The notes beneath the pieces are model-generated. The model saw only the letters and a list, made by a program, of their open reading frames with translations. It did not search any database and was not told the DNA's origin. This document shows, piece by piece, positions 3,432 to 8,802 of a DNA stretch of 57,816 bases (its first letter is position 1; each line of letters begins with the position of its first letter). Location of the stretch: the NCBI GenBank assembly GCA_030427935.1, contig JAUICI010000007.1, positions 1 through 57,816 of the forward strand, in the 5' to 3' direction. The DNA is from Bacteroidia bacterium (lineage in GTDB: Bacteria; Bacteroidota; Bacteroidia; Flavobacteriales_D; Crocinitomicaceae). The position numbers and the translations under genes are program-made.

Positions 3432-5378
3432 ATGAATAAATACAAGATTGGACATAAACTAGCTCAAATTGACACTCCCAAAGACCTAAGGGAGAAATTT
3501 GAATTGAGAGATCTTCCGGAAATTTCGGAAGAACTTCGAGACTATATTGTTGAAGTTCTTTCTGATATTGGGAATTCTCATTTTGGTGCCAGTCTTGGAG
3601 TAGTTGAACTCACGGTCGCTTTGCACTATGTTTTCAATACACCAGACGATCGAATTATTTGGGATGTCGGTCACCAAGCTTATGGACATAAAATTCTAAC
3701 AGGAAGAAGAGATCAGTTTCACACCAATCGTTTGAAAGGTGGCATTTCTGGCTTCCCAAAAAGAAAAGAAAGTGAATACGATGCTTTCGGTACAGGTCAT
3801 AGTTCAACCTCTGTCTCAGCTTCTTTGGGACAAGCTGTAGCCAATAGCTACCAAGGAAAAAACGCCCAACATGTAGCCGTAATCGGAGATGGAGCACTAA
3901 CGGGAGGAATGTCCTTTGAAGGCTTAAACCATGCAGGTGCTTTGAATAGCAACATGCTAATCATCTTGAATGACAATTGCATGTCCATCGACCCAAATGT
4001 GGGGGCTTTAAAAGAATATTTAACAGATATTACGGCTTCGAAAACTTATAACAAAGTCAAAGATGATGTTTGGAAAGTTTTAGGAAAAATTTCCAAGTTT
4101 GGTCCGAATGCACAAAGCATTGCCGCTAAAGTTTCAAAGACCGTGAAAGGCTCCTTCCTGAAGCAAAGTAATTTCTTTGAATCTTTAAACTTTAGATATT
4201 TTGGTCCGATAGACGGGCACGATGTGGTGGCTTTAACCCAAGTCTTGGGGGATTTGAAAGAAATTAAAGGGCCAAAAATATTGCACATCCTAACTAAAAA
4301 AGGAAAAGGCTATGAGCATTCAGAGTGGGGAGATCCTACACTTTGGCACGCACCCGGTGTTTTCAATAAAGATACAGGTGAAATTGTAAAAGTGAGTCCG
4401 GCTTCTCCTGAACCTCCGAAATTTCAGGACGTATTTGGACATAGTATCGTAGAATTAGCTGAGAGAAATCCGAAAATCATGGGAATTACTCCAGCCATGG
4501 CTACAGGTTGTTCATTGAATATCATGATGAAAGCCATGCCCGAAAGAACATTTGATGTGGGCATTGCTGAGCAACACGCCGTTACCTTCTCAGCTGGACT
4601 GGCCAGTGAGGGTATGATTCCTTTTTGCAATATCTATTCTAGTTTCATGCAGAGGGCTTTTGATCAGATTATTCATGATGTGGCTATTCAGAATCTGAAT
4701 GTCGTTTTTTGCTTGGATCGAGGGGGACTGGTTGGAGCAGATGGAAGTACACATCACGGAAGTTTCGATATTTCTTATATGCGAATGATTCCGAACATGA
4801 CCGTTGCAAGCCCTTTGAACGAAGAGGAGTTGCGAAACCTCATGTACTCGGCTCAGTTAGAAGACAAAGGTCCTTTTTCCATTCGTTATCCTAGAGGGAA
4901 AGGTGTGATGATCAACTGGAAAACTCCCTTCAAAGAGATCAAAATTGGTACTGGACAAAAATTAAGAAATGGAACCGATTTGGCCGTTTTGACTTTTGGT
5001 CCAATCGGAAATGAAGCCATCAAAGCCATTGAAAAAGCCGAAGAAGACGGCAAATCAATAGCGCATTACGATCTAAGGTTTGCAAAGCCACTGGATGAAA
5101 TCTTATTGCACGAAGTCTTTTCAAAATTTGATTCCGTCATTACTGTTGAAGATGGTAGCTTAATGGGAGGCATTGGATCTGCTGTATTAGAATTCATGTC
5201 TACGAATGGTTATAAAGCTGAAGTACTTCGTTTGGGTATACCAGATAGATTCATCAGTCAGGGAACACAAGAAGAATTGTGGAAGGAATGTGGGTATGAC
5301 TCGGAAGGAATTTATAAGGCTATTACTCATCAAATCAATAGCTCCACTAGTGAAAAGTCCAAGAAAAGAGTACTTTAA
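3432..5378 (+). CDS. dxs: 1-deoxy-D-xylulose-5-phosphate synthase
   Basis: 648 residues. Condenses pyruvate and glyceraldehyde 3-phosphate, the first step of the MEP isoprenoid pathway, and also feeds thiamine and pyridoxal synthesis. The thiamine-diphosphate binding motif GDGALTGGMSFEGLNHAG is split by a line break but intact, followed by LNDNCMSIDPNVGAL; GHQAYGHKILTGR and the catalytic glutamate in VGIAEQHAVTFSAG are also present. The transketolase C-terminal domain covers about residues 500-630. It starts on the base after the stop of the M42 gene with no gap. No terminator is visible after it before the cold-shock gene. Confidence 0.97.
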   Translation: MNKYKIGHKLAQIDTPKDLREKFELRDLPEISEELRDYIVEVLSDIGNSHFGASLGVVELTVALHYVFNTPDDRIIWDVGHQAYGHKILTGRRDQFHTNRLKGGISGFPKRKESEYDAFGTGHSSTSVSASLGQAVANSYQGKNAQHVAVIGDGALTGGMSFEGLNHAGALNSNMLIILNDNCMSIDPNVGALKEYLTDITASKTYNKVKDDVWKVLGKISKFGPNAQSIAAKVSKTVKGSFLKQSNFFESLNFRYFGPIDGHDVVALTQVLGDLKEIKGPKILHILTKKGKGYEHSEWGDPTLWHAPGVFNKDTGEIVKVSPASPEPPKFQDVFGHSIVELAERNPKIMGITPAMATGCSLNIMMKAMPERTFDVGIAEQHAVTFSAGLASEGMIPFCNIYSSFMQRAFDQIIHDVAIQNLNVVFCLDRGGLVGADGSTHHGSFDISYMRMIPNMTVASPLNEEELRNLMYSAQLEDKGPFSIRYPRGKGVMINWKTPFKEIKIGTGQKLRNGTDLAVLTFGPIGNEAIKAIEKAEEDGKSIAHYDLRFAKPLDEILLHEVFSKFDSVITVEDGSLMGGIGSAVLEFMSTNGYKAEVLRLGIPDRFISQGTQEELWKECGYDSEGIYKAITHQINSSTSEKSKKRVL

Positions 5379-5451: not shown

Positions 5452-5643
5452 ATGAGTAAAGGAACAGTTAAGTTCTTTAATGAGACAAAAGGATATGGTT
5501 TCATTAAAGACGATGAGAACGACAAAGAGTATTTCGTTCACATTACAGGAATTATCGACAAAATCAAAGAAAACGACACTGTCGAGTTTGAACTCCAAGA
5601 AGGTAAAAAAGGATTAAATGCAGTGAACGTTAAAGTGTGCTAA
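5452..5643 (+). CDS. cold-shock domain protein (CspA family)
   Basis: 63 residues forming one complete cold-shock domain: GTVKFFNETKGYGFI (RNP1 region) and EYFVHITGI (RNP2 region). It binds single-stranded nucleic acids; family members act as RNA chaperones and antiterminators. It is slightly shorter than the usual 64-70 residues, with no extension. A strong intrinsic terminator follows 26 nt after the stop. Upstream, TACTTTG at 5424-5430 resembles a sigma-A -7 box but is one base short, so the promoter is not certain; read-through from dxs is also possible. Confidence 0.95.
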   Translation: MSKGTVKFFNETKGYGFIKDDENDKEYFVHITGIIDKIKENDTVEFELQEGKKGLNAVNVKVC

Positions 5644-5668
5644 AATTAAAACTTTATAAGATTACCAA

Positions 5669-5697
5669 AGGCGAACAGCAATGTTCGCCTTTTTTAT
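5669..5697 (+). terminator. intrinsic terminator of the csp gene
   Basis: 9-bp perfect stem AGGCGAACA (5669-5677) with TGTTCGCCT (5682-5690), GCAA tetraloop, followed by a T run. It ends transcription from csp and probably from dxs. Confidence 0.93.
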
Positions 5698-5809
5698 TTT
5701 CCAATAACGTATTTTTACTCTACACGCATAAGAAAAAAGCCTTTATTCATTGAATAATAAAAGGGAAATATTAAAATCTGATTTTCTGTGAGTTAGGAAA
5801 TATTGTTGA

Positions 5810-5844
5810 TTTGTAATTTTTATCAATATTCTTTCCTATCTTTG
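5810..5844 (+). promoter_or_regulatory. sigma-A type promoter of the candidate small RNA
   Basis: TATCTTTG at 5837-5844 is a perfect TAnnTTTG -7 box. TTTG at 5810-5813 lies 23 bp upstream, slightly longer than the 18-20 bp spacing of the other good promoters in this window. It faces a 400-bp stretch without a protein gene. Confidence 0.5.
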
Positions 5845-5849
5845 AAACT

Positions 5850-5990
5850 CCTCACACTCAGGAAAAGTTTATCACCTTATTTTTTGTTTGTCATTATTGA
5901 TGCTTATACAACGCCTCAATATACTTGTAACTAGTCTAGCCCGAAAAATCTTGTGAAACCTTCTTTCTGAATTCAGGGAGAGGGTTTTTT
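5850..5990 (+). ncRNA. candidate small RNA, possibly 6S-like
   Basis: The 408-bp gap 5644-6051 holds no credible protein gene. Within it a consensus -7 box is followed about 110 nt later by a strong terminator. The 5' part of the predicted transcript (ACTC, CUC, then CAGGAA) can also pair with the 3' arm (GAG-A-GGGU, UUUCUG), giving a rod with an internal loop, the general shape of 6S RNA. Bacteroidota have divergent 6S-type RNAs, so this is a reasonable hypothesis, but I cannot run a covariance model. The rest of the gap (5698-5800 and 5991-5998) shows nothing recognisable. Confidence 0.45.
5957..5990 (+). terminator. intrinsic terminator of the candidate small RNA
   Basis: Self-complementary 30-mer 5957-5986: two 15-nt arms meeting at GAATTC, all positions paired if G-U wobbles are counted (practical loop AATT), followed by six T (5985-5990). 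Confidence 0.75.
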
Positions 5991-5998
5991 GATGGAAT

Positions 5999-6028
5999 AA
6001 AAAAAGCCGCTCCCTCCAGAGCGGCTTT
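5999..6028 (-). terminator. intrinsic terminator of the 6052-8802 gene
   Basis: 10-bp perfect stem AAAGCCGCTC (6003-6012) with GAGCGGCTTT (6019-6028). On the minus strand it is followed by seven T. It can also work on the plus strand. Confidence 0.93.
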
Positions 6029-6051
6029 AAAAAATTAAAGGTAGGTATGAA

Positions 6052-8802
6052 TTACTTTTTGATTAGCTTCTCTTGGAAACTACCTTCTTGATTGATTACT
6101 TGAATTGTATACATACCAGACACTTCTCTCGTAATATCAATATTAAACTTCGTTCCGAAAGTTGTGGTTTGAAGCACGAGTTCTCCTCTTAGGTTATAAA
6201 CCTTAACTTCATTCTCTGCATCTCTCGAAGCTCCTTCCAACTCGATGTTGAAGATTCCTGTTGATGGGTTAGGAGAAGCTTTCATTCTTTGAACAGGAGG
6301 CTCAAATGAATAAACTGCAAAATCAAATAACTCGCATGACCCTTGACAAATAACATCATCTATAGTCACTTCAATTCTTCTTATTGAATTTGATGAAAAC
6401 GCCCTATTAAAATTGAGAACAGGTGCAGTTGTAGAAGTTGTCCATGGAGTCCCAAGAACTTGATTATTTGCATCATAATTAGTAATCGTCCAATAATAGG
6501 TACTATTTGGACAAATACCTGAATTATCTGCAACCATGCTAAATCTCCAAACATCTACTTGAGGATTGCCATAAGAAAACAGAATATAAGGGGTTGGGCT
6601 ACTAGACAATCCTTTTGAAATAACGGACGTGGAATTTGTAACTACATAGTCTTTTTCGAATACACCACAATCCGTTGTCATTACTAAAGTAAATGTTGAT
6701 GTAGCTCCAGCATTAACAGTAGCATACATAGAAAACCCTGTTTGACCTGCTAAAATATTCCCGTTTTGATCTTCCCAATGATAAGAGTATACAGCAGGAG
6801 AACCTAACAAGAATAAAGGATCTACTGAGAAACCAATTTGAATTCCCAAACTTGTCAACCCACAATAAGATATGTTTTCAGTACTCAAGTCTAAGGAAGC
6901 TGGATACCTTTGCTCAATAGTAATTTGCTCTTCTTTAATAGTACCGCAATCATCTGAAATCAATAATGTATATGTTCCCGGTTGATTAACTATATATGAT
7001 GATCCATTTTGAGTTGTAGTTCCGTCAGACCAAATATAAGTATGATTAGGATCGAAAGGAGCAACCGTAAGCGTCTGAGGTTCAAATCCTGTAAAAGTTG
7101 AATTTGGACATAAATAAGCACTTCCTACGATGACCTCAGAAGGTGTTCCATTGTCGCAACCTGTGCAAGAAGCCCCTGGTTGAACATTAGCCACATTAGT
7201 TTCGAAATAATTAGTGTTCTCAATTGTATTGATTTGACAAATAGACAACTCATTGGAATAGAATCTTTGTACAGAAGGAAACCTAAAAACACCAAAATCA
7301 CTTGATTTTTCAAATTGACAATTCTGACCTAATACATTAAAAGTTCCATATTTAAAATCATCCGCTGGATTAGAAGGGAAACTGTTAGCTGGATTATCAA
7401 CTCTTGGATAAAAGATGTATAGTTTATTATTTGTAAATAAAGCATTGCTAAAATCCCTTTCATCTTCAGACCAATTTCTACCAAAATCTGATTTAGTTTT
7501 ATTTTCATAAACTATATTTCCACTCGAAAGGTCTACAGACATTGTATAAATATCATTTTCTCCTCCATAAGTACCGTACGGCGTGGCTCCTCCATACTCC
7601 CATTTGGCAGAACCCATCATTAAAAACAGCCTATTGTTATCAGTAAATTGAGCTGATTTAATAAAATGACTAATCGTTGGTAAACTACCGTCTTGAAATT
7701 GTGAATTATAGACAGTTAGTTGATTTGCCACACCTGAAAGGCTTCTAATTTGATCTGATGTTGAATTTAATTGGGGGATATATTCACATACAAATGGAGA
7801 CCAATAGTTATCGCAGTTTGAGCCGGTCGAACCATTTAAACCAATATCACCAATCAAATATAATTTATCGTTAAACTCATTCTTCATTATTCTTCTAATA
7901 TTAAAGTAATCAGTTATTCCAGATACATTTTGACATAGTGGTGGAACATAATTTTGATTTAACTTCAATTGAGTATAGTCAACAAAGGATCCATTAGTAT
8001 TAAAGTGAATCAAAAAGTGAGCTGTTGAAAAATCGACATTATTTGGTGCTCCACCTGTTTCAAACCTTTGCATCGAGGCCGATACTATATATTGTCCTTG
8101 TGCCTCTATCACTGAAGTTCCTTTGCAATTTTGATATCCCGCAGGAAAGGTGTGTTGTACTTCACAACCAGCATTTCCAGCCCATACGCTATTAAAAAAA
8201 ACAACATTCCCAAAAGAATTTAACTTTAATAATGAAACTTCGCCAGTACCTTGGTTATTCCAGTTTAGAACGAATAACGCGCAATTATCTGAAGTCTCTA
8301 TAATTTGTGAACATGTCATTAATTTAGGATTTTTCTTGTCGTCTTGAAGTAAATGAGTTCCGATTAGTTTAAGGTTTAAATTAAACCTAAAAATAACCGA
8401 TTGGTTATTCATTGTGCCATAAACAAAATATCCGGTGGCTTTCCTATCTAGTCTGGGATTGGATAAAAACTGGACCTGTTCAACGATTAAACCAGAAAAG
8501 TCTTGAGATAAATCGACATTTTTAGTTACTAATACAGTTGATCCGTCAATCGAAACTTTGCTTAAAATTAATGACACATTATTGTCATCATACGAAACTA
8601 TTAGCCGGTCCACTGGATTTCCATTTTTGTCCAAAGTGGTGGTTGAAATATCTCTATTGGTTGTTGAATAGAATACACTTGGCATACCATTCGGTGCTAC
8701 CGCAGTGTGCCCAGGAACCTCATAGTCGTAAGAAGATAGATTTTGTGCTTTGCCCCACAATGCTCCTAGCATCATCGTGGCTACTAAAACGATTTTTTTC
8801 AT
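6052..8802 (-). CDS. secreted protein with T9SS type A sorting domain
   Basis: 916 residues. The N-terminal signal peptide is about 20 residues (KIVLVATMMLGALWGKAQ). The middle is long, beta-rich and without a catalytic motif that I recognise; there is a cysteine-containing stretch around GASCTGCDNGTPSEV and an Ig/PKD-like part (YIWSDGTTTQ, GTYTLLISDDCG). The last about 75 residues form a type A T9SS domain: SPNPSTGIFNIEL, VYNLRGELV, SGMYTIQV, ending in KLIKK. It is exported by Sec, then by T9SS to the surface or medium. Single gene with its own terminator. Two 13-bp direct repeats lie 90-123 bp upstream. Role unknown; adhesin or structural protein is a guess. Confidence 0.88.
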   Translation of the reverse strand: MKKIVLVATMMLGALWGKAQNLSSYDYEVPGHTAVAPNGMPSVFYSTTNRDISTTTLDKNGNPVDRLIVSYDDNNVSLILSKVSIDGSTVLVTKNVDLSQDFSGLIVEQVQFLSNPRLDRKATGYFVYGTMNNQSVIFRFNLNLKLIGTHLLQDDKKNPKLMTCSQIIETSDNCALFVLNWNNQGTGEVSLLKLNSFGNVVFFNSVWAGNAGCEVQHTFPAGYQNCKGTSVIEAQGQYIVSASMQRFETGGAPNNVDFSTAHFLIHFNTNGSFVDYTQLKLNQNYVPPLCQNVSGITDYFNIRRIMKNEFNDKLYLIGDIGLNGSTGSNCDNYWSPFVCEYIPQLNSTSDQIRSLSGVANQLTVYNSQFQDGSLPTISHFIKSAQFTDNNRLFLMMGSAKWEYGGATPYGTYGGENDIYTMSVDLSSGNIVYENKTKSDFGRNWSEDERDFSNALFTNNKLYIFYPRVDNPANSFPSNPADDFKYGTFNVLGQNCQFEKSSDFGVFRFPSVQRFYSNELSICQINTIENTNYFETNVANVQPGASCTGCDNGTPSEVIVGSAYLCPNSTFTGFEPQTLTVAPFDPNHTYIWSDGTTTQNGSSYIVNQPGTYTLLISDDCGTIKEEQITIEQRYPASLDLSTENISYCGLTSLGIQIGFSVDPLFLLGSPAVYSYHWEDQNGNILAGQTGFSMYATVNAGATSTFTLVMTTDCGVFEKDYVVTNSTSVISKGLSSSPTPYILFSYGNPQVDVWRFSMVADNSGICPNSTYYWTITNYDANNQVLGTPWTTSTTAPVLNFNRAFSSNSIRRIEVTIDDVICQGSCELFDFAVYSFEPPVQRMKASPNPSTGIFNIELEGASRDAENEVKVYNLRGELVLQTTTFGTKFNIDITREVSGMYTIQVINQEGSFQEKLIKK

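What the first reader, a model, noticed from the sequence alone, without database searches (positions are those of the whole stretch)
5837..5990. Candidate small RNA with 6S-like folding between csp and a T9SS gene
A perfect TAnnTTTG box, about 140 nt without a protein gene, and a strong terminator form a complete independent transcription unit. The 5' segment pairs with the 3' arm (ACTC-CUC and CAGGAA with UUUCUG and GAG-A-GGGU) to form a rod with an internal loop, as in 6S RNA.
Basis: partly seen in the sequence, partly recalled or inferred. Interest (0 to 1): 0.6.

Follow-up and report, generated by a model that had tools for sequence, protein, structure and literature searches.

The report
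Genus-specific bacterial small RNA gene
This is most likely a real small RNA gene of about 140 bases, kept by selection in the two held species of one bacterial genus, but it does not look like a 6S RNA and its job is still unknown.

Summary
The transcription unit looks real; the 6S-like fold is not supported. Window 5837-5990 has a TAnnTTTG box, about 142 nt without a credible protein gene, and a terminator hairpin (5957-5990), after dxs-csp. The only other held genome of the genus (G001) has the same element, same strand, same place (195 nt after csp, against 193). Although four-fold sites of dxs are only 41% identical, the unit aligns at 113 of 146 positions (z 12.6; upstream flank z 2.3) and shares an invariant 27-mer. 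The terminator keeps its helix through four double base-pair changes. Differences fall evenly on codon positions in all three forward frames, unlike csp. Found in 2 of 240 family genomes, the window's own included. Best reading: a genus-restricted, sequence-conserved, probably trans-acting small RNA. No conserved target was found. Ordinary kind, new member.

The parts
5810..5813 (+). possible -33 TTTG element, 23 nt before the -7 box
   Evidence: sequence; neither TTTG nor TTG in the 40 nt before the G001 box, so weak
5837..5844 (+). -7 promoter box TATCTTTG (TAnnTTTG)
   Evidence: exact match; TATATTTG at the same place in G001
5849..5990 (+). predicted small RNA, about 142 nt; start placed from the -12 to -5 position of the box given in a passage of PMC9723704
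   Evidence: 5837-5990 against G001: 113 of 146 aligned positions identical, z 12.6
5868..5957 (+). conserved body, TTTATCACC to CTTGTGAA
   Evidence: 71 of 84 aligned positions identical (which compared 5869-5957)
5931..5957 (+). 27-mer CTAGTCTAGCCCGAAAAATCTTGTGAA, identical in G001
5957..5990 (+). terminator: 13-bp stem (5957-5969 with 5974-5986) and a four-T tail
   Evidence: z -4.0; four double changes that keep pairing, two of 13 pairs missing in G001
5452..5643 (+). csp, cold-shock domain protein, upstream neighbour
   Evidence: PF00313
5667..5692 (+). terminator-like hairpin after csp, which separates csp from the small RNA
6003..6028 (-). terminator-like hairpin of the convergent gene
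6052..8802 (-). convergent gene with a type 9 secretion sorting tail; not at this place in G001
   Evidence: PF18962; layout of L002

Best explanation
A genus-restricted, independently transcribed intergenic small RNA of about 142 nt (149 nt in G001). Shown by comparison of two species: a conserved promoter box, conserved primary sequence that ends in an identical 27-nt block, and a covarying terminator stem. Inferred: sigma-A RNA polymerase starts near 5849 and stops at the hairpin; the RNA then acts in trans through the conserved block, most likely by pairing with mRNAs, otherwise by binding a protein.
For: Same element, strand and place after dxs-csp in G001 (193 and 195 nt after csp). RNA unit 113 of 146 aligned positions identical, z 12.6; the stretch between csp's terminator and the promoter gives z 2.3; dxs four-fold sites 84 of 204 identical. 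Terminator strong in both, with four double changes that keep pairing. Differences by codon position 7,7,6 / 7,6,7 / 6,7,6 in the three forward frames, against 2,3,23 in csp: not coding. Conservation lies in sequence and not in body structure, as one would expect of a pairing or binding RNA (inference). TAnnTTTG-driven intergenic RNAs with intrinsic terminators are known in Bacteroidota (passages of PMC7366714 and PMC9723704).
Against: Only two sequences in the collections searched. No transcript data. The flank, aligned with gaps, also reaches 67 of 98 identical positions, so raw identity is a weak measure and the z-scores carry the argument. No conserved target: complements of the block gave no pair of related genes between G000 and G001. 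The first complement is rarer than its reversed control (8 against 34 in G000, 3 against 38 in G001, the RNA gene itself included); the second is commoner (17 against 2, 11 against 6), but 12 of 16 G000 hits and 7 of 10 G001 hits besides the gene itself lie, by their longest ORF, on the strand opposite to a gene, where they could not serve as targets. Pairing with csp and dxs is at shuffle level. The T tail is short.
Confidence: 0.55

Rival explanations
1. It is the 6S RNA of this lineage, or works like one: a long rod with a bubble that mimics an open promoter and captures RNA polymerase.
For: In single-sequence folds both species share UCAC/GUGA, AUUUUU/AAAAAU and an inner UAUUG/CAAUA hairpin, pair probabilities mostly 0.78 to 0.97, lowest 0.52.
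Against: No 6S family among the 31 Rfam hits at E up to 10. Body fold z 0.0 and 0.8 (242 and 409 of 500 shuffles as good); two-sequence consensus of the body as good or better in 455 of 500 column shuffles, of the rod alone in 471 of 500. The rod pairs named are invariant, so no covariation. No 5'/3' closing stem beyond chance. Found in 2 of 240 family genomes, where 6S would be expected widely (own knowledge). Another 6S candidate at G000:C162.
Confidence: 0.05
2. A short mRNA, for instance for the 18-aa frame that starts with ATG in G000 and ends at TGA 5954-5956.
For: The last 23 codons before the shared TGA have no indel, and 11 of 23 are identical.
Against: 10 non-synonymous against 2 synonymous changed codons; differences 6, 7, 6 over codon positions; the other two forward frames are no better, 11 to 0 and 8 to 2. 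No ATG in that frame in G001; 1- and 2-nt indels shift the frame upstream.
Confidence: 0.08
3. A small RNA that binds or titrates a protein through the conserved sequence and is not an antisense regulator.
For: Sequence conserved without body structure; no conserved complementary target found.
Against: No protein site recognised; not testable here.
Confidence: 0.25
4. Conserved non-coding DNA (a regulator's site, or a hairpin that serves the convergent gene) and not a functional transcript.
For: No transcript data; in G001 the convergent DUF2480 gene's stop abuts the hairpin.
Against: Conservation spans the stretch between box and hairpin (71 of 84 in the body), and in G000 the convergent gene has its own terminator-like hairpin.
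Confidence: 0.07

Closest known systems
High-confidence intergenic sRNAs of Bacteroides thetaiotaomicron, such as GibS (PMC7366714, passages seen)
   Same: Intergenic, own start site, intrinsic terminator, TAnnTTTG-type promoters common; 27 of 49 are strain-specific in that paper
   Different: No sequence comparison made; targets and expression unknown here
Independent transcripts of Flavobacterium psychrophilum, such as Rfp18 (PMC9723704, passages seen)
   Same: Flavobacteriales, TAnnTTTG promoters, short non-coding independent units
   Different: Different family; no sequence comparison made; no expression data here
6S RNA: RF00013, 6S-Flavo RF01685, Bacteroidales-1 RF01693
   Same: Size range; a rod can be drawn
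   Different: No model match, no closing stem or rod beyond shuffles; a separate 6S candidate exists in the genome

Membership tests
6S RNA | match to a 6S covariance model | tested here: not met
   the only Rfam match of the window at gathering score is a tRNA; no 6S family among 31 hits at E up to 10 for 5640-6060
6S RNA | 5' and 3' ends closed by a stem | tested here: not met
   pairing at shuffle level in both species; terminator hairpin preferred
6S RNA | conserved rod with a central bubble | tested here: not met
   a short rod is predicted in both but the body fold is at shuffle level, z 0.0 and 0.8, and the consensus is not better than column shuffles
6S RNA | no better 6S gene in the genome | tested here: not met
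   G000:C162:2146-2271 matches RF01685 (30.7 bits, cut-off 85) and RF01693 (24.1 bits, cut-off 60) at one place; both below cut-off
6S RNA | binds RNA polymerase and templates pRNA | not testable with these tools
   needs RIP-seq or an in vitro assay
intergenic trans-encoded sRNA | own promoter | tested here: met
   TAnnTTTG box kept in G001; sequence evidence only; no -33 element in G001
intergenic trans-encoded sRNA | own intrinsic terminator | tested here: met
   z -4.0 and -5.0, covarying stem; short T tail, not listed by the scan
intergenic trans-encoded sRNA | no protein coded | tested here: met
intergenic trans-encoded sRNA | conserved target mRNAs | tested here: inconclusive
   no related pair for two complements of the block
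intergenic trans-encoded sRNA | expressed transcript | not testable with these tools
   no RNA data

The most novel reading that the evidence does not exclude
A new, lineage-born small RNA in which selection acts on a 27-nt sequence and not on a fold, tied to one protein partner or one group of mRNAs; it would show that genera of this family carry private regulators that structure-based searches miss.
Probability: 0.15. Interest if true: 0.45.

Novelty: new member of a known kind. Interest (0 to 1): 0.27.

Why it matters
It is a conserved small RNA gene without any Rfam match, in a family for which the one literature search made ('Crocinitomicaceae' with 'small RNA') found 0 papers in the held library. 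It shows how one related genome can separate a real unit from a wrong fold. The side result, a candidate 6S gene far below Rfam's cut-offs, would help annotation of this family if confirmed.

Tried and rejected
6S membership: rejected. RF00013 gave nothing over its cut-off in 39 genomes (own included), one weak hit in G004 (E 0.167), while 5 of 14 control genomes rang; it also gave nothing in the two f3 genomes it included, f3 being the family in which 6S-Flavo rang, so this model says little here. 6S-Flavo over 120 order genomes at E 0.001, with stricter filters: 3 weak hits, all in f3, none over the cut-off; its first run on the own genome at E 0.001 found nothing and no control rang.

Wider homologues: 27-mer with up to 3 mismatches in 240 family genomes, 2 with a match, own included; model R1 in 240 family genomes, stricter filters, 2; R1 with laxer filters in 39 genomes at E up to 10: 28 with a match, that is 26 besides G000 and G001, the best at 27.8 bits. 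That best one (L132) overlaps the start of a protein gene and was taken as chance; of the other weak hits only the alignments printed were seen. Downstream of csp in other genera: 28 loci held out of 60 genomes searched, 27 printed and read by eye (L082 gave no output), no look-alike seen. Downstream of dxs: three short Csp motifs found in 0 of 28 other-genus loci held, some of them truncated.

Targets: complements CGGGCTAGACTAG (2 mismatches) and TTCACAAGATTTTTCGGG (3 mismatches) in G000 and G001. Hits near a start: L097 (G000, 23 nt before), L123 (G000, 60 nt before), L105 (G000's relative G001, 33 nt before a 68-codon frame that lies opposite a longer one). Comparison of the longest ORF at each hit by blastp at E 0.001 gave no pair; shorter ORFs were not compared. 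Block against csp and dxs: shuffled blocks pair as well in 99 of 200 (G000 csp), 35 of 200 (G001 csp), 114 of 200 (G000 dxs), 77 of 200 (G001 dxs) (the G001 csp row was empty through a bad anchor and was redone). Peptide: rejected.

MAFFT misplaced the terminator arms of the two sequences. One search used an alignment made by hand and drawn to favour the shared helices, one letter shorter in one row and padded; the whole unit then beat all 500 column shuffles (z -5.1), owing to the terminator, but the body did not.

Full report
What is there. Window 5837-5990 (+) starts with TATCTTTG, an exact TAnnTTTG box, and ends with a 13-bp hairpin and four T. Upstream lie dxs (3432-5378) and csp (5452-5643) with a terminator-like hairpin at 5667-5692; downstream is a convergent 916-aa gene with a type 9 secretion sorting tail. 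In F. psychrophilum the box sits at -12 to -5 (passage of PMC9723704), so the start would be near 5849 and the RNA about 142 nt.

Is it real? Of 59 genomes searched with the DNA, the window's own included, three had a match: G000 itself, G001 (same genus, E 1.3e-13), and G024, a 31-bp match inside a gene, taken as chance. G001 has the element on the same strand at the same place after dxs-csp, 195 nt after csp against 193. The two species are far apart: dxs proteins 529 of 648 identical, 84 of 204 four-fold sites identical. Yet the RNA unit is identical at 113 of 146 aligned positions (z 12.6 against 300 shuffles) and its body at 71 of 84, while the stretch between csp's terminator and the promoter gives z 2.3 (67 of 98 aligned positions; gapped alignment of A+T-rich DNA inflates identity, so I rely on z). 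A 27-mer, 5931-5957, is identical. The hairpin keeps pairing through four double changes, with two of 13 pairs missing in G001.

Is it coding? The frame that runs to TGA 5954-5956 has 11 identical, 2 synonymous and 10 non-synonymous codons, differences 6, 7, 6 over codon positions; csp has 37, 22, 4 and 2, 3, 23. The other two forward frames give 7, 7, 6 and 7, 6, 7. So coding is unlikely; two sequences only.

Is it 6S-like? Single-sequence folds give both species a short rod, which alone looks like support. Controls remove it. The body without the terminator folds at z 0.0 (G000) and 0.8 (G001), and the two-sequence consensus of the body is matched or beaten by 455 of 500 column shuffles. The terminator carries the significant structure (z -4.0 and -5.0; whole unit z -5.1). 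Rfam gives no 6S family at gathering score or at E up to 10.

Where is the 6S RNA? A search of G000 with 6S-Flavo at E up to 10 gives one hit, G000:C162:2146-2271 (-), 30.7 bits, E 0.0226 per genome, under the cut-off of 85. At that threshold 4 of 14 control genomes also rang, two of them archaea, so the threshold alone proves nothing. But the same place and strand also matches Bacteroidales-1, '6S-Bacteroidales RNA suggested', at 24.1 bits, E 0.87. It lies between ssb and a fatty acid desaturase gene, folds at z -2.7 (2 of 200 shuffles as good) with a 13-bp stem that joins its ends, and has a TACATTTG box upstream. I take it as the likely 6S gene; it is not proven, and in G001 only chance-level hits were found (E 4.39 and 7.2).

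How far does it spread? 2 of 240 family genomes, own included, by pattern and by model, and 1 of the 18 stretches of a genome-contig scan, which is G001 again. It is restricted to the genus as far as these searches reach; a diverged homologue could be missed, since the model rests on two sequences.

How does it work? Shown: conservation and the terminator stem. Inferred: transcription. Action in trans is inferred from the lack of a cis partner: the next gene is convergent in both species and differs between them, csp has its own terminator, and pairing with csp and dxs is at shuffle level. The stretch CUAGUCUAGCC is partly unpaired in G000 (0.48 to 0.99), but its last bases are paired in G001 (0.01 to 0.98 over the stretch), so the contact site is a guess, and no conserved target was found. 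I put mRNA pairing first and protein binding second.

Verdict. Very likely a real, conserved small RNA gene of an ordinary kind, a new member, function open; the 6S reading is rejected on present evidence.

Noticed in passing
L129:1472-1649 (-), G000:C162:2146-2271 (-): Candidate 6S RNA gene of this genome between ssb and a fatty acid desaturase gene; it matches 6S-Flavo and Bacteroidales-1 at one place, far below Rfam's cut-offs, so annotation at those cut-offs would miss it.
   Followed up: partly
window 6052-8802 (-) and L002:969-1478: The 916-aa T9SS-cargo gene lies between the small RNA and the DUF2480 gene in the window but not in G001, where the homologue of DUF2480 abuts the small RNA's terminator.
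   Followed up: partly
L006:1398-1518 (-), L007:1501-1623 (+), L008:1501-1619 (+): Three genomes of one other family carry 6S-Flavo matches of 38 to 46 bits, under the cut-off of 85; in the two whose ORFs I listed (L006, L007) a gene that looks by eye like an ABC-transporter ATPase lies next to it (no family search).
   Followed up: no
G000 and G001 whole genomes: CGGGCTAGACTAG with up to 2 mismatches is much rarer than its reversed control (8 against 34, 3 against 38), whereas TTCACAAGATTTTTCGGG with up to 3 is commoner (17 against 2, 11 against 6); base or codon composition is a possible cause, not tested.
   Followed up: no
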